IMG/VR virus record: IMGVR_UViG_3300047562_000058
Location: 1-20,246 of that record
Reading direction: 5' to 3' (one strand)
DNA length: 20,246 nucleotides
Source of the DNA: a virus
Shown here: positions 10,299-17,651 of the stretch, piece after piece
Layout: each line of letters begins with the position of its first letter
Position numbering within the stretch: the first letter of the stretch is position 1
Translations under genes and position numbers: made by a program
The notes under the pieces: generated by a model
Told to the model about the DNA's origin: nothing
Databases searched by the model: none
What the model saw: the letters and a program-made list of their open reading frames with translations, nothing else

Positions 10299-10441
10299 TA
10301 TACTACTGCTCCGTAGATTGTACCAATATTGTTTAAAAATCCAATAGCTGTTCCAGAGATAGCTGCACCCCCTGCGCCACCACGTCTAGCGGCACGGTCA
10401 AGCATAGCCTCTAATTCATCTGATGTCAAGTTTACGCTCAT
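10298..10441 (-). CDS. Small Gly/Ala-rich protein (47 aa)
   Basis: A 47-codon frame joined on both sides: its ATG overlaps the stop of the glycine-rich gene in an ATGA, and its TAA overlaps the next ATG in a TAATG. The N-terminal half is a charged helix (LTSDELEAMLDRAARR). It is followed by GGAGGAAISGTAIGF and a mildly hydrophobic end (IGTIYGAVV). The split into a charged helix and a glycine-rich hydrophobic tail could suit a small membrane-active or virion protein, but the hydrophobicity is borderline for a membrane span. The perfect coupling signals and absence of stops across the whole gap are the main evidence. No family is recognised. Confidence 0.75.
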   Translation of the reverse strand: MSVNLTSDELEAMLDRAARRGGAGGAAISGTAIGFLNNIGTIYGAVV

Positions 10442-11238
10442 GATGGCACCGTGAATGTATGTGTTCCTGTAGCTGTGTAGATATAGTCTGTGCCATTTAC
10501 AGTAAGTTTACAGTAGCCGTTAGCACCTGCACGACCATCAGTACCAGGATCAGGACTAATGTTTGTGCCAGCTACACCAATGTAGATAGAGACGGTTTGA
10601 CCAGGGGTGACCAAGACGGTTCCTGTGGATGGCATACCTACATAGCGAGTTAGGTACGTACTAGAGTTCCAAGCATACACATTGTAGGCGGTTCCATTAG
10701 TACCACCAGCAAAGCCACCCTCACCACCGTTTCTGGCAGAGAATGGGTTAGCACCACCACCGCCGCCACCTGCGCCATAGCTTGTGGATGGGGCTGGATA
10801 GCCAGCCGTTTGGTTACTACTGTCTGAGTTTGCGCCACCTGCACCACCAGAGCCGTAGTATGAGTTAGAGCCAGCACCCCAGCCCGTCTGAATACCACCA
10901 CGACCACCACGGCCACCCGGTGATGTAATAGTGGTAGAAGATCCACCCGCAGGTGTGTAAGTTAGAGTACTTGCTTGACCATCAGTACCGTTGTTTGCAG
11001 TAGTCCACCCTGAACCGCCGCCACCACCAGCACCAATAATCTCATAGGTCATGTAGACACCTTTGGTAGCACCACGAAAGCTACCCATGTTAATCAAACC
11101 ACTTGTGGGTACGTTTGTGTTATTTGCAGTTGTGTAAGGGCCATTACGATAATATTCAGATAAGCTAATGAATCCTGTACCACCGAACTCATTCTCCAGT
11201 GTCTGAAACGAAAAAGATCCTGTGGATGGTATAGTCAT
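10438..11238 (-). CDS. Glycine-rich tail fiber tip / adhesin-like protein (266 aa)
   Basis: The N-terminal 60 residues have a pattern found at the start of many phage tail proteins: IPSTGSFSFQTLENEFG, SLSEYYRNG, then VPTSGLINMGSFRGA. Residues 70-185 are extremely glycine-rich (GAGGGGGSG, GGRGGRGG, GAGGGGGG, GGEGGFAGG), separated by short Asn/Ser/Tyr stretches. This resembles the polyglycine-II sandwich adhesins at fiber tips, such as gp38 of T-even-like Salmonella phages. The C terminus returns to beta sequence (VTPGQTVSIYIGVAG, then YIYTATGTHTFTVPS). The likely role is receptor contact or a fiber cap. It follows the repeat-rich fiber gene with a 3-base gap. The composition makes this region visibly richer in G+C than its surroundings, which is a consequence of Gly codons. 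Confidence 0.85.
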   Translation of the reverse strand: MTIPSTGSFSFQTLENEFGGTGFISLSEYYRNGPYTTANNTNVPTSGLINMGSFRGATKGVYMTYEIIGAGGGGGSGWTTANNGTDGQASTLTYTPAGGSSTTITSPGGRGGRGGIQTGWGAGSNSYYGSGGAGGANSDSSNQTAGYPAPSTSYGAGGGGGGANPFSARNGGEGGFAGGTNGTAYNVYAWNSSTYLTRYVGMPSTGTVLVTPGQTVSIYIGVAGTNISPDPGTDGRAGANGYCKLTVNGTDYIYTATGTHTFTVPS

Positions 11239-11241
11239 TCG

Positions 11242-13254
11242 TTAAATACCTGTATCAAAAGCTGTAATATCACCACGAACGTTTAGGTTACCAGAAGAAT
11301 CTAATTTAAATAACTTGGTTGCACCGTAGTAAATGTTTAACTCGTTAGACGCACCTACTTCAAACTTCCAATTTGAAGCCCCTGCTGACATAATAATATC
11401 GTTGCCTACATTCATATTATTATTTGCAGTAACATTATTATTTGCAGTAATGTCAGCTTCTGCATAAATGTCATTATCTGTTGGTACACCAGTAACGGAA
11501 CCTACATATAAACCATTTTGCACCGCCATGCCACTAGAGGTTAGACGCATTTCTTCTGTAGTACCTGCACTAAATTTAAGCGTACTTGCAGTAGCTATGT
11601 CAATAGCACCTCTTTGGACACCATCGTCCTTGAAATAAATCACACCGCCGCCAGCGTCTAAAGTGATACTACTACTTGCATCAACCGTAAAGGTAGAAGA
11701 CCTAAGAGTGAGCGCTTCTGCCGCACCTGTACCTATAGATTGTATTGTGGCACCTGATGATGTCAGGTCAATATCTACACCAAGAATGGGATCTCCCATA
11801 TCTGCGTCATTCCATACACGGAAAGTACCACCACCTGTACCAGTAAATGGAACATTATAAATGTACCCACTGCTGTTGCCTATGATCCGTCCGGGGTAAA
11901 TACTACCAGCATAAAAAGTATCACTTCCAACAGACCACCTGTCATTGGTTTCATCCCAGATAAATGATTTGTTAGCAAGAGTACCACGTTCAATCTCAAT
12001 ACCACCATTCTCTGTTGGGGAAGAGCCTGTGTAGTTACTATTAAGAAGAATCAGATTGTCTGCAATGTTTACTGTCTCTGTGTTTACTGTAGTAGTTGTA
12101 CCAGAGATAGTTAGGTTGCCGCCTACTACAACATTTCCTGTAGTAGTCAGGCTTGCCATAGTATTGGCACCTGTAGATGTTACGTTACCTGTGATATTGC
12201 CTGTAACATTACCAGTCAAATTGCCTGTTACGTTACCTGTAATACCAGCAGGGGCAGATACAGCACCAGTAAGTGTACTTGCACCTGTGACAGCTAGAGT
12301 GCCGCCTACAGTAGTATTGCCAGTTACACCTAGTGTGCCACCGACAGTAGTATTACCTGCAGCAGCAAGAGTACCTGCTACAGTGGTATTACCTGTTGTT
12401 GCAGCTACAGTGAACTTGTTTGTATTGATATCAAAGTTACCATCAATGCCAGCGTTACCTGTTACGTTCAGACCGCTTGAGCCATTGATGTTGCCTGTTA
12501 CAGCTAGAACACCTGCAACGTTTGTGTTACCTGACTGTGAGTCTACAGTAAACTTGTTTGTAGCTACATCAAAGTTACCGTCTACGCCTGTAGTACCAGT
12601 CACATTCAAAGCACCACCAAGGTTGGTTGTACCTGTAACACCTAGTGTGCTAGACAGAGTAGTAGCACCAGTAACGCCAAGCGTACCAGCTACTGCTGTA
12701 TTACCTGTAGTGGCATTAACAGTGAACTTATTGGTATTAATATCAAAGTTACCATCAATACCAGTAGCACCAGTTACAGCTAGTGTACCTGCTATAGCAG
12801 TGTTACCTGTGCTAGACGCTACAGTGAACTTATTAGTGTTGATATCAAAGTTACCATCAATACCTGTAGCACCAGTTACATTAAGATTGTTACTAAGAGT
12901 AGTAACACCAGTAACACCTAGTGTACCGCTTACAGTAGCATTCTCGTCTACAGAGAGTGTGTCTGTATTAACTAAGCCATCAAAGTACGCATTCTTGTAT
13001 TGTACTTCTGCAGAGCCTAGATCAAGAGTGTTTGTACTCTTCGGCATTACAGCACCAGAAGACACAATAAGATCTTGTACTGGTCCTACCTTGGTAATAG
13101 GCGCACCTTCACCAGATGTACCGTCATGTGTGTGTCCAGATGTACTATTAAAAGCACCTTCAATAGAGTTATACTCTGCATCAAAGTCATCAGCATCAAT
13201 AACATTACCGTTAGCGATATTGTTTGCTGTATCCTGACGTGTATATCCAGCCAT
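11242..13254 (-). CDS. Repeat-rich tail fiber protein (670 aa)
   Basis: The N terminus (GYTRQDTANNIANGN, then DADDFDAEYNSIEGAF and GHTHDGTSGEGAPI) is a conserved virion-attachment type found in marine phage fibers. Residues 105-330 are a beta-repeat shaft of GTLGVTGATTL-like units, with GIDGNFDINTNKFTV or close variants at residues 131, 165, 223 and 269. A GNVTGN run (residues 340-358) follows. Residues 385-470 (NIADNLILLNSNYTG, then GGIEIERGT and WDETNDRWSVGSDTF) form a globular part often seen in such fibers. The end (WKFEVGASNELNIYYGATKL, then GNLNVRGDITAFDTGI) is a beta-rich tip without an S74 chaperone. AAGGAT lies before the ATG. The likely function is host contact or a shaft; the exact position on the virion is unknown. 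Confidence 0.9.
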   Translation of the reverse strand: MAGYTRQDTANNIANGNVIDADDFDAEYNSIEGAFNSTSGHTHDGTSGEGAPITKVGPVQDLIVSSGAVMPKSTNTLDLGSAEVQYKNAYFDGLVNTDTLSVDENATVSGTLGVTGVTTLSNNLNVTGATGIDGNFDINTNKFTVASSTGNTAIAGTLAVTGATGIDGNFDINTNKFTVNATTGNTAVAGTLGVTGATTLSSTLGVTGTTNLGGALNVTGTTGVDGNFDVATNKFTVDSQSGNTNVAGVLAVTGNINGSSGLNVTGNAGIDGNFDINTNKFTVAATTGNTTVAGTLAAAGNTTVGGTLGVTGNTTVGGTLAVTGASTLTGAVSAPAGITGNVTGNLTGNVTGNITGNVTSTGANTMASLTTTGNVVVGGNLTISGTTTTVNTETVNIADNLILLNSNYTGSSPTENGGIEIERGTLANKSFIWDETNDRWSVGSDTFYAGSIYPGRIIGNSSGYIYNVPFTGTGGGTFRVWNDADMGDPILGVDIDLTSSGATIQSIGTGAAEALTLRSSTFTVDASSSITLDAGGGVIYFKDDGVQRGAIDIATASTLKFSAGTTEEMRLTSSGMAVQNGLYVGSVTGVPTDNDIYAEADITANNNVTANNNMNVGNDIIMSAGASNWKFEVGASNELNIYYGATKLFKLDSSGNLNVRGDITAFDTGI
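12175..12924 (-). repeat. Irregular in-frame repeats in the fiber shaft
   Basis: The segment holds many short units encoding GTLxVTG and four longer units encoding G(I/V)DGNFD..TNKFTV. The copies near 12411, 12722 and 12824 are nearly identical as DNA over about 40 bases, and the copy near 12548 has diverged. The end nearest 12175 is a run of GNVTGN-type hexapeptides. Confidence 0.85.
12221..12237 (+). repeat. 17-base sequence shared with the S74 fiber gene
   Basis: TTGCCTGTTACGTTACC occurs here and again at 20032-20048 in the same orientation. Both copies encode the GNVTGN repeats of two different fiber genes about 7.8 kb apart, so they could serve as a short homology for recombination. Confidence 0.7.
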
Positions 13255-13263
13255 GTTAAATCC

Positions 13264-14802
13264 TTACTGTCTATCGTTTTGTCTGAACTCTAGTATAGCT
13301 GTGTCCAGAGTAAATCTTGGGTTAGTGGAACTGTCTTCCATACGTATAGCTACTGTCTTGCCTGATCCAATAACGTTTGAGTTATATACTTTATCTAACT
13401 CACCACCAAATGTAGCAGTACCAAATACAGATGCAGTACCACCATAAAAGAATACAGAGTTACCCGCACTTGATACCGTAAATGTGTTAGGCTGTATAAT
13501 ACCTGTATTGGTAGATGCATCAAAGTCATATTTAAAGTTAACATCTAACTCCATAGGACCACTAGGATCTGCATATAAAGTCATCTTATAGAATGTCTTA
13601 CGTGTTTGCGGATCTGTAATAGGCATATATGGAGACTCATAGATAGCCTCAATAATGTCGCCATCAAAGTCACTGCCTGTATCTAGCTCATATACGTAGC
13701 CATCTTCATTAGCAAATATTACTGTTTCAGTATACGAAGATGTGTACTTACTGTCTGTGCAATATGCTTTAATACCTTTAGTAGTAGCCCAAGCAAAGCC
13801 ACCAGCACCTTGAGATACAAACTTAGTAGTAAGTAATCCTTTAGAAACACTTGCTTGTTCAGATGGAACATAAGAAAATACACGGTACTGTGCTTTCTCA
13901 CGTATAACCAAAGAACAAAAGTGTGCGCCTGTAGAAAGTAATTCAAAAGCATCTTTAGCAATAGGATCAGATGCAATGTCCAAACCAAAGTCACCGATAC
14001 GATCCGTAGCACTCAGTAGTCGTATACCATCAGGTGCAGCATACATAATGTCACCACCGACCTCTTGGATAGTACCTCCGCTAATACAGCCGATACGATC
14101 TGTAATAGGTTGCAATGTAATGTCTGAGATTGTAGAACCTGTTAGGCGTTTAATACTGTTACGACAAAAAATAATTAACTGATCACGGAAAACAGCTAGA
14201 CCTGTAATGGTGTTGCCTACATTGATAACACCACCACCATTAGCAGGACTAAAGTCATCGTATGTAGATGGAGCAGTAAAGTACAAGCTATTGTCTTTGG
14301 CATAGAAGGTAGTTGTTTTGTACACAGCTACATATTCTGCACCTAGTACATCTGCAGATGAAGTAATGGAGGTGGCTGTATTAGTTGTATCATCAAAGAC
14401 TACAGGATAGTTTACACTATCTACCATTAATACTTTATTGCCACCCCCAAAGTTTAACTCTTCAAATCTAACTAGGCTTCCGTTAGCAGCCATAGTTAAG
14501 ACAGGAGTCCAGCCACTACCTGCGCTATGATATACTACACTTGATGTATTGTTACTTCTTATAGCTACAACTTCACCGTCACTTACTACTTTAACGCCTA
14601 GCACTGGACCAGATCCTGGTACAACATTAGGCTCCCACTTCGTGTAGCCTTGTATTTTGGTATAACCACCAGCTTTGTCAGGCTCAAAGTTCTGCAATAC
14701 AGTAGCAGAACCTACAGCATTAGTACCGTGCTGTAGTGGTGATAGGTTAGATATCAAACCACCCTTAAACTCAATAGGAAATGTCTGCCACTGTGTTGCC
14801 AT
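13264..14802 (-). CDS. Tail/head-completion protein, stabilization-protein-like (512 aa)
   Basis: The N terminus reads FPIEFKGGLISNLSPLQHG, then NFEPDKAGGYTKIQGYTKW. This is the pattern at the start of phage neck or tail stabilization proteins such as P22 gp10-type and tail-tubular-B-type proteins, where a chain enters the virion and then forms a beta-propeller. The middle has repeated beta blades (VLGVKVVSDGEVVAI, then YVAVYKTTTFYAKDNSLYF and GLAVFRDQLIIFCRNSIKRL). FCRNSIKRLTGST and IGCISGGTIQEVGGDIMYAA match the hallmark 'what is displayed on startup' loops of that family. The C-terminal part is more variable. It follows the gp4-like adaptor with a TAATG overlap, the expected order of neck genes in podoviruses. 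The exact homologue remains uncertain. Confidence 0.85.
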   Translation of the reverse strand: MATQWQTFPIEFKGGLISNLSPLQHGTNAVGSATVLQNFEPDKAGGYTKIQGYTKWEPNVVPGSGPVLGVKVVSDGEVVAIRSNNTSSVVYHSAGSGWTPVLTMAANGSLVRFEELNFGGGNKVLMVDSVNYPVVFDDTTNTATSITSSADVLGAEYVAVYKTTTFYAKDNSLYFTAPSTYDDFSPANGGGVINVGNTITGLAVFRDQLIIFCRNSIKRLTGSTISDITLQPITDRIGCISGGTIQEVGGDIMYAAPDGIRLLSATDRIGDFGLDIASDPIAKDAFELLSTGAHFCSLVIREKAQYRVFSYVPSEQASVSKGLLTTKFVSQGAGGFAWATTKGIKAYCTDSKYTSSYTETVIFANEDGYVYELDTGSDFDGDIIEAIYESPYMPITDPQTRKTFYKMTLYADPSGPMELDVNFKYDFDASTNTGIIQPNTFTVSSAGNSVFFYGGTASVFGTATFGGELDKVYNSNVIGSGKTVAIRMEDSSTNPRFTLDTAILEFRQNDRQ

Positions 14803-15482
14803 TAGAAATAAACTCTTGTATCACGTAGATACTCTGTACGGTTAATATGAAGACTACGTAACTGTTTAATACCTTGCTCAAACTTATCAAAGGCTAACTG
14901 TGCTGCTTGCATGTCACCACGGAATTGGTAAACATTGTACATAGCACCATCAATAATAACATAACGATATTGTTCTGGTAGGCTTGGTACGTCGCTGTAA
15001 AGCTCTAAATCATAACCATTACGATAGTATTCATATACTACTTCATATGCTTTGTCTGGTTTTGGATAAAAGATAAGCTCACGGCTAGGGGTGCGTACTA
15101 CATGTGTTGGTACTGTATTACTAGAGTTATACTCAGAATCGGCATACTTGTCAAGATATTCTTCGTAAGATAGTACTTTTAACTTAACTGTTTCAATATT
15201 TAAGGTGCTATTACGCTTAATACGAAATGTATTCATGTTAATTGTCTTACAATCGTAAGGCATACTATAACGTGCAACACCTGCTACAAGTATCTCAGAC
15301 TCTTCAACATGGTTCCAAGGCCACTCAAACTCTTCCTGTTGGATGTGACGAATAGCTTGATTAACAGAATCTTTAGCAAAGCTGTAATAGCCTGTAGCTC
15401 CAGCAAAGTTACCAGCAGTAAGTTCTACCTCATTCAAGCGGCGGTTAACGTCATTAACCAGTCCTAGATAATTATAGGCCAT
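14802..15482 (-). CDS. Head-to-tail adaptor / tail accessory factor, gp4-like (226 aa)
   Basis: A mostly helical N-terminal half (LVNDVNRRLNEVEL, then YYSFAKDSVNQAIRHIQQEEFEWPWN) leads into a beta part (LVAGVARYSMPYDC, RTPSRELIFYPKPD, YEVVYEYYRNG). It ends in a helix containing YVIIDGAMYNVYQFRGDMQA. This architecture matches P22 gp4-type and tail-tubular-A-type adaptors, which bind under the portal and close the neck. The EFEWPWN motif and the DG-x-MY-x-VY-x-FRGD end are the family-type signatures. A portal gene should lie upstream in the leftward operon, beyond the window. A strong AAGGAG precedes the ATG, and the preceding gene's stop is 2 bases away. Confidence 0.85.
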   Translation of the reverse strand: MAYNYLGLVNDVNRRLNEVELTAGNFAGATGYYSFAKDSVNQAIRHIQQEEFEWPWNHVEESEILVAGVARYSMPYDCKTINMNTFRIKRNSTLNIETVKLKVLSYEEYLDKYADSEYNSSNTVPTHVVRTPSRELIFYPKPDKAYEVVYEYYRNGYDLELYSDVPSLPEQYRYVIIDGAMYNVYQFRGDMQAAQLAFDKFEQGIKQLRSLHINRTEYLRDTRVYF

Positions 15483-15484
15483 TA

Positions 15485-15802
15485 TTATTTCTCCTTAACA
15501 CGCAGGAAGATAGAGCGTTCATACTGCAAACCTTCATTTGTGTTGACTCTGCATGTAACATTATAACGCACATTGTTTGTACCTAAACTAAACCGTGCTG
15601 TAGCTACAGTAGTAGTATTTGTACCAGTAACAAACTGCAAACCATTCACAACGCTAGAGTCTGCCACCTCTGTCTTAACACCGTCTGCATCATCTACATA
15701 CCATGTAACAGCAGATATAATATCATCACCAAGAAAACGTGACCAGTCTACGCTATAGTCAAGCATCTCATCTTTATCTTTATCAGGCCACTTATATGAC
15801 AT
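15485..15802 (-). CDS. Small beta-rich tail or fiber-associated protein (105 aa)
   Basis: The N terminus (MSYKWPDKDKDEMLDYSVDW, then SRFLGDDIISAVTWYVDD) is a pattern seen in small phage proteins beside neck and fiber genes: 'P.KDPDE.LDY..DW...L..D.I', followed by an Ig-like sheet. The rest (GLQFVTGTNTTTVATARFSL, then VRYNVTCRVNTNEGLQYERS) is consistent with a single beta-sandwich, ending FLRVKEK. Proteins of this pattern are sometimes annotated as fiber-tail adaptors. That name is from memory and not tested. It sits between the 22-residue-repeat protein and the adaptor, which suits a joining role. AAGGA lies 8 bases before the ATG. Confidence 0.82.
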   Translation of the reverse strand: MSYKWPDKDKDEMLDYSVDWSRFLGDDIISAVTWYVDDADGVKTEVADSSVVNGLQFVTGTNTTTVATARFSLGTNNVRYNVTCRVNTNEGLQYERSIFLRVKEK

Positions 15803-15811
15803 GGTTATTCC

Positions 15812-16705
15812 TTATGCTGCAATATTGACAGTATAACTACCGCCTGTCTTTTCTATGTAAACGGTTCGATTTTCAGGATTAATTTGTACTGTTCTGTTTT
15901 CATCATAGGATACTAAGTACAGAGTCCTATTTCTATCGTAACTGTCTGTGAATGGTGTAAAGTCAAACCTTACTGCTGTAGGATCTTCTAAGTTTTGGCT
16001 TAGAATTAAGCTATCTAAAGTACTAAAGTTTGCTGTGGCTTGTGCGTCTACATCATAGAAATTATTTATAGATACATTAGCAATTACAGTACTTGTAGTT
16101 ATATTCGCTTTTGCATTATAGTCAACTTCTGATACTTCTAAGTTGGCATCTACAAAACTGATAAACGTAGTTGCTTTTGCGTCAAAGTCTACATCAACGT
16201 TACCTACCGCAACAGCAGGTGACATGAATGCTCTGGCTTGTGCATCTTCGTCTGCAAAGTCTGTGAGGTATATTGTCAGGTATGCAGAGGTGGAAGACAG
16301 TGTTGTATTAGCTTGGGCATCTACATCAGCCAAATTGTAAGCAAGGATGTTAGACGTAACGGACCCTAGTGTAAGGTTTGCTTTAGCGTCATAGCTTAGT
16401 GTATCAGCACTAAAAGTAGCAACCACTGCGCTGGGCGATGTAGTAGCCTGTGCATCAACGTCAAGTAAATCATTAATAGAAAGACTTGATAGCACAGACA
16501 CTACATTAGTTGAGGCTTTAGCGTCAAACTCTATTGCAACTGCAGTGCTGGATACTACAGGATTAAGAGTATAGACGGCTTTAGCGTCATACCCAGAAAC
16601 ACCTGCATAGCCCTGAGATGTAACAGAAGCCATAAAAGCTAGGGCTGCTAAAGATGTAACAGACTGTGCAAAAGGTGTTTCAGAGAATGCGGTAAAGCCT
16701 AACAA
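15812..16705 (-). CDS. 22-residue-repeat protein with DAKA/DAQA motifs (297 aa)
   Basis: I do not recognise this as a named family. After an opening segment (GFTAFSETPFAQSVTSLAAL), the chain has nine repeats of about 22 residues, each marked by DAKA or DAQA (or NAKA) at residues 40, 61, 84, 106, 129, 154, 175, 197 and 220. Spacing is 21-25. The intervening sequence is rich in Ser, Thr, Val and Ala with alternating hydrophobics, as in beta strands, so a beta-solenoid or strand-rich stalk is plausible. The C-terminal part has three NRTxx units (NRTLYLVSYDENRTVQI, then ENRTVYIEKTGGSYTVNIAA) that read as a beta sheet. The start is TTG with AAGGGGG 7 bases upstream, overlapping the previous stop. 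No cysteines or membrane segment are present. A virion decoration or fiber role is inferred. Confidence 0.85.
   Translation of the reverse strand: MLGFTAFSETPFAQSVTSLAALAFMASVTSQGYAGVSGYDAKAVYTLNPVVSSTAVAIEFDAKASTNVVSVLSSLSINDLLDVDAQATTSPSAVVATFSADTLSYDAKANLTLGSVTSNILAYNLADVDAQANTTLSSTSAYLTIYLTDFADEDAQARAFMSPAVAVGNVDVDFDAKATTFISFVDANLEVSEVDYNAKANITTSTVIANVSINNFYDVDAQATANFSTLDSLILSQNLEDPTAVRFDFTPFTDSYDRNRTLYLVSYDENRTVQINPENRTVYIEKTGGSYTVNIAA
16037..16588 (-). repeat. Nine-copy 22-residue protein repeat
   Basis: The units are in frame and about 66 bases long (63-75). They encode a DAKA or DAQA motif followed by a Ser/Thr/Val-rich strand region. DNA copies have diverged, apart from the short core TTTAGCGTC or TGTGCATC that encodes the motif, so the array is old. 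Confidence 0.85.
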
Positions 16706-16712
16706 TACTTAA

Positions 16713-16719
16713 CCCCCTT
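16713..16719 (-). promoter_or_regulatory. Shine-Dalgarno site for the TTG start at 16705
   Basis: AAGGGGG on the - strand lies 7 bases before the TTG at 16705 and runs into the TAA stop of the upstream gene. There is no in-frame ATG until residue 25, so this site fixes the TTG start. Confidence 0.7.
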
Positions 16720-17035
16720 ATTCTGGCTTTGTTGGCCAAGTGATTTCTGTTGGAAACCCAGACTGACTTGGAATATCCCGAAGGGCTTGGCGATAGTCTT
16801 TCTCAGCTTGGGTCATAGTGCGGTCTTGTACAGCCCACCAATCGGTTTCAGATAATTTTACGTTACGAATGGCTCTGTTTTTATTTTCAAGTTCGTCAAC
16901 AGAAGGACGACCCCATGGATAATCCTTATCCGCCACAGGAATAACACTAATAACTGTCTCTACTCCATCTGTATCAACAGAAATATGGTCAAAGTCTCCA
17001 TCGCTTCTTTCTTTTAAATAATAATAACCACTCAT
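16718..17035 (-). CDS. Tail fiber assembly chaperone-like protein (105 aa)
   Basis: I start this gene at the ATG at 17035, one base after the stop of the fiber-like gene, with GGGGG 6 bases upstream. A longer frame from 17122 would overlap that gene by 86 bases without need. Residues 68-105 carry the tail-assembly-chaperone (Phage_tail_APC-type) signature: LSETDWWAVQDRTMTQ, then YRQALRDIPSQSGFP and a terminal ITWPTKP. Such proteins help fold or attach fiber tips and are usually encoded next to the fiber they serve. The N-terminal part (SGYYYLKERSDGDFDHISVD) is more variable and may recognise its client. Its client is probably the fiber-like protein directly upstream. Not found in mature virions in the best-known examples, so probably non-structural. 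Confidence 0.85.
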   Translation of the reverse strand: MSGYYYLKERSDGDFDHISVDTDGVETVISVIPVADKDYPWGRPSVDELENKNRAIRNVKLSETDWWAVQDRTMTQAEKDYRQALRDIPSQSGFPTEITWPTKPE

Positions 17036-17036
17036 T

Positions 17037-17651
17037 TTATACCCCCACACTATATACTTTAACTCTATAGAAACCAAGGTTTCCAGATTGTGCCGAAAAG
17101 AAAACCCTACCAACAGGTCCATTAGTAGTTAAGGCCCGTGCGCTATAATTAGCTATACACGAATTTGAAGATGTATCAAACCAAGTACTTGTGCCATAGA
17201 GCATAGGTGTATTAAAGGGTAACGAAGTTACTTGAGGAGAATGCACATAACAAGCAGTTATTAATCTTTCACCTGCATATGTTGTGGAATTTACAGACCC
17301 CATATCCCAGTAATTTAGCGCCGTAGAAGGACTGTTATTGCTAAAATAAGTGTTTGTCGTGCTATTTGCCATGGTACGATATGCAACGTTAATTGTAGTT
17401 CCAGAACTGTTTTGTAGTGCTACACTCATATTAAAGTTAGCTGCTGTTGCCTCTGACAATTCTGCAATGATATAGTGTAGGTTTGCGGCAGAGTTTAGTG
17501 CCACCCAAACCCCACTAACATTTTGACCACTCGTGTCCGTGACTAGTTTAAACCCTGGAATGTTGTTCTTTGATGTTTGGTCTAGCCCAGCAATATTATT
17601 TAGTACTCTCGTATCATCAATAACCGTTGTATTGTTTACTTTGATAGCCAT
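17037..17651 (-). CDS. Fiber-like / receptor-binding candidate protein (204 aa)
   Basis: The N terminus (MAIKVNNTTVIDDTRVLNNI) is a short conserved module found at the start of many marine phage fiber and tail proteins and probably serves attachment or trimer registration. The remaining 175 residues are beta-rich, with many Asn, Ser and Thr (GVWVALNSAANLHYIIAELS, VALQNSSGTTINVAYRTM, GFYRVKVYSVGV), and resemble a compact globular tip. No catalytic motif is visible. It is followed directly by a chaperone-like gene and preceded by the S74 fiber, so together the three may form the host-recognition part of the virion. GGAGG lies 9-10 bases before the ATG. Confidence 0.82.
   Translation of the reverse strand: MAIKVNNTTVIDDTRVLNNIAGLDQTSKNNIPGFKLVTDTSGQNVSGVWVALNSAANLHYIIAELSEATAANFNMSVALQNSSGTTINVAYRTMANSTTNTYFSNNSPSTALNYWDMGSVNSTTYAGERLITACYVHSPQVTSLPFNTPMLYGTSTWFDTSSNSCIANYSARALTTNGPVGRVFFSAQSGNLGFYRVKVYSVGV
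17042..17046 (-). promoter_or_regulatory. Shine-Dalgarno site supporting the start at 17035
   Basis: GGGGG on the - strand lies 6 bases before the ATG at 17035, within the last codons of the preceding gene. It supports the shorter 105-residue product over the frame opening at 17122. Confidence 0.6.

What the first reader, a model, noticed from the sequence alone, without database searches (positions are those of the whole stretch)
15812..16705. Unrecognised virion-region protein built from nine 22-residue DAKA/DAQA repeats
Motif positions 40, 61, 84, 106, 129, 154, 175, 197 and 220 give a steady 21-25 residue period. The motif varies between a Lys form (DAKA or NAKA at 40, 61, 106, 175, 197) and a Gln form (DAQA at 84, 129, 154, 220), usually as DVDAQA or DEDAQA in the Gln units. 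I know no named repeat family with this signature. The acid-Ala-(Lys/Gln)-Ala core and Ser/Thr/Val-rich strands suggest a regular solenoid or a string of small strand pairs, with the Lys/Gln choice marking two faces or two unit types. The NRT-rich C terminus looks like a separate sheet. Placed between a fiber chaperone and the neck genes, it is a candidate for a new type of stalk or decoration protein.
Basis: partly seen in the sequence, partly recalled or inferred. Interest (0 to 1): 0.62.

Follow-up and report, generated by a model that had tools for sequence, protein, structure and literature searches.

The report
Repeat-built phage tail appendage protein
A marine phage carries a tail protein made of a variable number of about 22-residue repeats, with a striped end piece, and genes of this plan sit directly beside the gene for the ring that holds tail fibres in many unrelated phages, so it is probably an overlooked kind of tail appendage or stalk.

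Summary
The 297-residue ORF at 15812-16705 (minus) has nine [DN]A[KQ]A motifs, 21-25 residues apart, and no Pfam, PHROG, NCBIfam or PDB match. The Lys/Gln 'two-face' idea fails: unit type follows unit length and the residue before the motif. The gene lies directly upstream of a Gp77-like (PF23148) fibre-tail adaptor gene. In over 140 related marine viral contigs the same place holds a protein of the same plan: conserved N-terminus, a varying number of 22-23-residue units (DAKA or GVSATG dialect), and a C-terminal ladder of R/N-T-V-Y-I strands. Outside this clade (Burkholderia, Pseudomonas, Agrobacterium, Microcystis and uncultured phages) the gene directly upstream of Gp77 again tends to encode a 20-residue-period repeat protein with a C-terminal R-x-phi-x-phi ladder (75/100 versus 43/905 other ORFs), often between homologues of phage GP4 fibre I (Gp80) and Gp77. 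Most likely it is a variable-length tail appendage or stalk docking by its C-terminal ladder on the Gp77 ring. Architecture, position and purifying selection are shown. Fold, oligomer, virion location and docking are inferred: AlphaFold failed (pLDDT 38 and 45), and homology of marine and non-marine forms is unproven.

The parts
15812..16705 (-). repeat protein gene (297 aa, TTG start)
   Evidence: purifying selection against close homologues, dN/dS about 0.24-0.41
16589..16705 (-). conserved N-terminal segment, residues 1-39 (MLGFTAFSETPFAQ...)
   Evidence: M1, G3, S8 invariant and L2, F4 nearly invariant in 39 sequences
15983..16588 (-). array of nine 21-25-residue units, residues 40-241
   Evidence: motif positions and shuffles; alignment gaps between homologues cluster at 22-23, 44-46 and 66-68 residues
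16247..16321 (-). 25-residue unit, residues 129-153 (DAQANTTLSSTSAYLTIYLTDFADE), part of the most conserved stretch 129-174
   Evidence: D149, F150, D152, A155 nearly invariant; residues 129-174 have the highest median identity, 0.59
15815..15982 (-). C-terminal module, residues 242-297 (containing VRFDFTPFTDSYDRNRTLYL...)
   Evidence: F247 and Y256 invariant; shared with the GVSATG-dialect relatives
15815..15928 (-). strand ladder RTLYL / RTVQI / RTVYI / YTVNI, residues 260-297
   Evidence: sequence; ladder statistics
15485..15802 (-). Gp77-like fibre-tail adaptor, directly downstream
   Evidence: PF23148 E 1.6e-16; profile match to PDB 8jou chain D E 3.4e-9
14802..15482 (-). SU10-type adaptor (connector)
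   Evidence: PF24175 E 1.4e-20
16718..17035 (-). tail-fibre assembly chaperone (MSGYYYLKE... is the likelier start than the listed 17122)
   Evidence: PF16778 E 8e-18; the longer ORF overlaps 17037-17651

Best explanation
It is a virion protein of the tail-appendage module. The C-terminal ladder of short beta strands docks on the Gp77-type fibre-tail adaptor ring around the connector. The repeat array forms an extended, all-beta spacer or stalk whose length changes by gain and loss of whole units. The N-terminal segment caps the free end or contacts a partner. Shown: the repeats, the conserved termini, length variation in steps close to whole units, purifying selection, and fixed position beside Gp77. 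Inferred: presence in the virion, polarity (C-terminus anchored), docking on Gp77, and the stalk role.
For: Nine regular units. Direct Gp77 neighbour. Same plan in front of gp77 in essentially all of 77 distinct upstream ORFs of marine loci. Outside the marine clade, the ORF at -1 of gp77 has the C-terminal ladder in 75 of 100 loci versus 43 of 905 other ORFs, and strong periodicity, mostly 20 residues, in 62 of 98, almost never at other positions. A homologue of GP4 fibre I (Gp80) sits at -2 in 64 of the 69 distant loci that have one, so the order is Gp80 - repeat/ladder protein - Gp77. The counterpart in BcepIL02 is annotated 'virion-associated phage protein' and its PHROG as 'virion structural protein'. 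Homologue lengths run from 207 to 442 aa, with gaps near multiples of 22-23 residues. In mycobacteriophages the ladder protein is a large 'minor tail protein' with a Gly-rich N-terminal domain, which suggests a distal N-terminus.
Against: No structure model of use. Profile comparison does not connect the marine family with the Burkholderia-type family (0.2-1.5% probability), so the broad parallel may be convergence. The counterpart in Burkholderia phage JC1 (gp54) was not among virion proteins found by mass spectrometry, although its neighbours gp53 (Gp80-like) and gp55 (Gp77-like) were (PMC9144972). No solved chain of GP4 (PDB 8jou) matches the Burkholderia counterpart. No clear Gp80 homologue was found in the marine clade.
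Confidence: 0.55

Rival explanations
1. The repeat protein is the string of a bead-on-string fibre: each unit or pair of units binds one subunit of a small Gp80-like bead protein, making the chain-like fibre I, and the ladder ties the string to the Gp77 ring.
For: Gp80 - repeat protein - Gp77 gene order in 64 of 69 distant loci with a Gp80 homologue; regular unit length; whole-unit length variation.
Against: No detectable Gp80 homologue in the marine clade (Pfam none; hhalign 1.8%). The 145-aa CRP proteins may or may not be equivalents.
Confidence: 0.17
2. It is an assembly factor or chaperone for placing fibres on the Gp77 ring and is absent, or nearly absent, from the finished virion.
For: Position next to a fibre chaperone; counterpart not detected in JC1 virions (PMC9144972).
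Against: BcepIL02 counterpart annotated virion-associated; long multi-repeat forms with Gly-rich or other large N-terminal domains look structural.
Confidence: 0.15
3. It is a flexible, largely disordered low-complexity linker; the repeats are spacing only, with no ordered fold.
For: Ala/Ser/Thr/Val-rich sequence; AlphaFold2 pLDDT 38 and 45.
Against: Nearly invariant D/A/F positions in several units and dN/dS 0.24-0.41 point to a fold or binding site. Low pLDDT is common for intertwined trimers and shallow alignments (general knowledge).
Confidence: 0.13

Closest known systems
CRP-207 gp50, CRP-345 gp55 and CRP-603 gp57 (Roseobacter phages, HMO-2011 type; 'hypothetical protein')
   Same: Same position directly or almost directly before Gp77; same plan of N-terminus, repeats and C-terminal module (CRP-207 28% identity over the full length).
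   Different: GVSATG-dialect repeats instead of DAKA/DAQA; CRP-345 carries a ladder on a separate 37-aa ORF (gp54).
phrog_19041 'virion structural protein' (BcepIL02 gp56, BcepMigl gp57, JC1 gp54, Itty13)
   Same: In the Gp80-Gp77 interval; about 20-residue repeats; C-terminal R-x-phi-x-V ladder.
   Different: No profile-level homology to the window protein; different unit signature; different N-terminus.
Podophage GP4 Gp77 / Gp80 tail-fibre apparatus (PF23148, PF23140; PDB 8jou)
   Same: The partner genes of the module.
   Different: The repeat protein itself has no matching solved chain.
Gly-rich 'minor tail proteins' of mycobacteriophages BobsGarage gp24 and prophiGD54-2 gp42
   Same: Repeat stretch plus C-terminal ladder, two genes from a Gp77-like gene and next to a Gp80-like gene.
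   Different: Actinophages of another family (Vilmaviridae); large N-terminal Gly-rich domain; located downstream of Gp77.

Membership tests
Gp77-linked repeat/ladder protein (class proposed here) | directly upstream of a PF23148-type adaptor gene, same strand | tested here: met
   15485-15802 is PF23148 E 1.6e-16; 9-base gap
Gp77-linked repeat/ladder protein (class proposed here) | tandem units of about 20-23 residues | tested here: met
Gp77-linked repeat/ladder protein (class proposed here) | C-terminal ladder of short strands spaced 7-14 residues | tested here: met
   RTLYL/RTVQI/RTVYI/YTVNI; marine form of the motif, at least 3 rungs in 49 of 69 upstream ORFs versus 1 of 428 others
Gp77-linked repeat/ladder protein (class proposed here) | Gp80-like (fibre I) gene next to it | tested here: inconclusive
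   no hit in CRP relatives; the corresponding region of this phage lies beyond the contig end
phrog_19041 virion structural protein | profile match | tested here: not met
   no hit; hhalign 0.2%
same family as CRP-207 gp50 and the GVSATG-repeat proteins | profile homology | tested here: met
   tblastn 1e-5; HMM E 1e-11 to 1e-32; hhalign 99.7%, strongest over the C-terminal module
any named repeat family (Pfam, NCBIfam, PDB) | significant match | tested here: not met
virion protein | found in purified virions | not testable with these tools
   indirect and conflicting: BcepIL02 annotation against JC1 proteomics

The most novel reading that the evidence does not exclude
Tailed phages with Gp77-type adaptors share an unrecognised class of ring-docked appendage: a stalk of fast-evolving 20-23-residue repeats, adjustable in whole units, anchored by a C-terminal beta-strand ladder that may add strands to successive subunits of the adaptor ring, with exchangeable distal N-terminal domains.
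Probability: 0.35. Interest if true: 0.65.

Novelty: new variant of a known kind. Interest (0 to 1): 0.47.

Why it matters
Genes of this plan are annotated 'hypothetical' in HMO-2011-type marine phages, a group described as among the most abundant and widespread in the ocean (PMC9038755), and no family model covers them. If the ring-docked stalk reading holds, it gives a role to a gene sitting next to the fibre-tail adaptor across podophages, actinophages and uncultured marine phages, and it offers a natural set of phages differing in stalk length by whole units, which makes the effect of appendage length on adsorption testable.

Tried and rejected
Lys/Gln as unit-type marker: rejected. Known repeat family: none. 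Weak PHROG hits phrog_9864 and phrog_23849 (E about 0.1): chance level. Two AlphaFold2 runs (full length with 39 sequences; last 123 residues with 62) gave no usable model, so no fold search was run. Search of 84,980 bacterial and archaeal genomes found no relative (one peptide pattern only). An N-terminal motif shared by marine and podophage forms (FSETPF / LNETPING) looked tempting but is found in only a minority of the distant proteins by regular expression (16 of 101 against 50 of 616 controls): dropped. CRP 145-aa proteins as Gp80 equivalents: not shown. Full-length hhalign rows for the PelF set repeat one output and are ignored. No GP4 record under the accession tried; GP4 gene order is therefore inferred from BcepMigl.

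Full report
What is there. The ORF at 15812-16705 (-) encodes 297 residues with nine [DN]A[KQ]A motifs at exactly the positions given. Shuffled sequences have 0.04 motifs on average and at most 2, and the three-unit self-similarity exceeds all shuffles. The repeat does not appear at DNA level. The TTG start is backed by a good ribosome-binding stretch and by an invariant first residue in the 38 relatives aligned. Close homologues show dN/dS of about 0.24-0.41, so the reading frame is real and constrained.

The unit. From 248 motif-centred windows in the family, the consensus is roughly F-x-D-V-DA[QK]A-N-T-T-L-S-S-V-x-A-S-x-x-x. Units are of two lengths: short (21-22 residues) lead into an aromatic before DA (29 of 32) and long (23-25) into V, E or I (64 of 65). 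Lys or Gln in the motif does not follow this significantly (p = 0.076). Homologues range from 207 to 442 residues, and gaps in their alignment cluster at one, two and three unit lengths; aligners favour such gaps in repeats, so this is supportive rather than conclusive.

Relatives. Scanning IMG/VR with the protein gave 80 loci; anchoring on the downstream Gp77-like gene gave 80, partly the same contigs. Of 77 distinct ORFs directly upstream of Gp77, essentially all but the mycobacteriophage one have the same plan: a short N-terminus usually of the MLGF-xFS-xTPF type, repeats, and a C-terminal module V-x-F-[DP]-[YF]...Y-x-R-x-R followed by a ladder of NRTVYI-like strands (some are cut by contig ends). 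Many use another repeat dialect, VxAKANVxLTGVSATGxVxSV. The DAKA profile finds these (E 1e-11 to 1e-32; hhalign 99.7%), so the two dialects are one family, related to 'hypothetical' genes of Roseobacter phages CRP-207, CRP-345 and CRP-603; CRP-207 and CRP-603 are listed among the HMO-2011-type phages of that study. In CRP-345 a ladder sits on its own 37-residue ORF between the repeat protein and Gp77. The window's connector genes and Gp77 are 42-79% identical to CRP proteins.

Beyond the clade. The Gp77 partner is a recognised family named after the fibre-tail adaptor of podophage GP4 (PF23148; a profile of six members matches PDB 8jou chain D at E 3.4e-9). I collected distant Gp77 loci. At the position directly upstream, 75 of 100 ORFs end in a ladder of R-x-phi-x-phi strands against 43 of 905 other ORFs (p about 1e-59, not corrected for relatedness), and 62 of 98 are strongly periodic, mode 20 residues, against 10 of 365 at the five other nearby positions. 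In an earlier, smaller control the only four ORFs that scored high turned out to be the same kind of gene: an unannotated ORF before Gp77 in Agrobacterium phage Atu_ph08, and large tail proteins of three actinophages. A homologue of GP4 fibre I, Gp80, lies exactly one gene further upstream in 64 of 69 distant loci that have one. The ladders of the two non-window groups are related by profile (96.7%). The window's group is not shown to be related to them (1.5%); only a weak excess of cross-hits exists. So the general statement 'Gp77 genes are preceded by repeat-plus-ladder proteins' is firm; common descent is open.

How it most likely works. A gene fixed beside the fibre-tail adaptor, encoding an all-beta-looking, Ser/Thr/Ala/Val-rich repeat of adjustable length with a conserved C-terminal end piece, reads best as an appendage or stalk. 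I place the anchor at the C-terminus because the ladder is the feature common to all groups, while N-termini differ by lineage and in mycobacteriophages carry a large Gly-rich domain. Short R-T-V-Y-I strands repeated every 9-11 residues would suit strand addition to neighbouring subunits of a ring; this last step is inference. DEV, another podophage, has a C15 collar on a C12 connector, compared there with GP4 (PMC10925440), which gives a precedent for multi-subunit docking of appendages at this place.

Caveats. Virion presence is untested here, and evidence for the distant counterpart conflicts (annotation in BcepIL02; absent from JC1 mass spectrometry, PMC9144972). Structure prediction failed twice. 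The primary GP4 structure paper was not in the library; statements on GP4 rest on Pfam names, the PDB hit and citing papers.

Verdict. Real, regular, unnamed, and part of a wider pattern; probably a tail appendage protein of the Gp77 module. It is a new variant of a known kind rather than a new category.

Noticed in passing
L084:5885-5998 (CRP-345 gp54): A 37-aa ORF that is almost only the R-T-V-x-V ladder, between the repeat protein and the Gp77-like gene: the ladder as a separate peptide.
   Followed up: partly
L161:4363-4983 (Agrobacterium phage Atu_ph08): Unannotated ORF with repeats and C-terminal ladder directly before the Gp77-like gene; the record annotates a reverse-strand ORF (AUZ95466.1) there instead, probably spurious.
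   Followed up: yes
window 16718-17122: Listed chaperone ORF overlaps its neighbour by 86 bases; an internal ATG at 17035 (MSGYYYLKE) is the likelier start.
   Followed up: no
window 11242-13254: Tail fibre with its own array of NLNVTGATGIDGNFDINTNKFTV...TGNTAVAGTLGVTG repeats; the 393-aa plus-strand ORF 12056-13237 looks like its antisense shadow.
   Followed up: no
window 10438-11238: Gly-rich protein (GAGGGGG...), possibly a fibre tip; the mycobacteriophage ladder proteins carry a Gly-rich N-terminal domain of similar look.
   Followed up: no
L002:2381-3466 versus window 15812-16705: 77% identical homologue; nearly identical C-terminal two thirds but strongly diverged first 100 residues with a 64-residue (three-unit) insertion, a mosaic boundary inside the repeat array.
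   Followed up: partly
L085:744-1421 (Microcystis phage Mae-JY22): Another repeat dialect (DATHAHPVDxxALTQxHxLxV) with a RALVI ladder, three genes before Gp77.
   Followed up: partly
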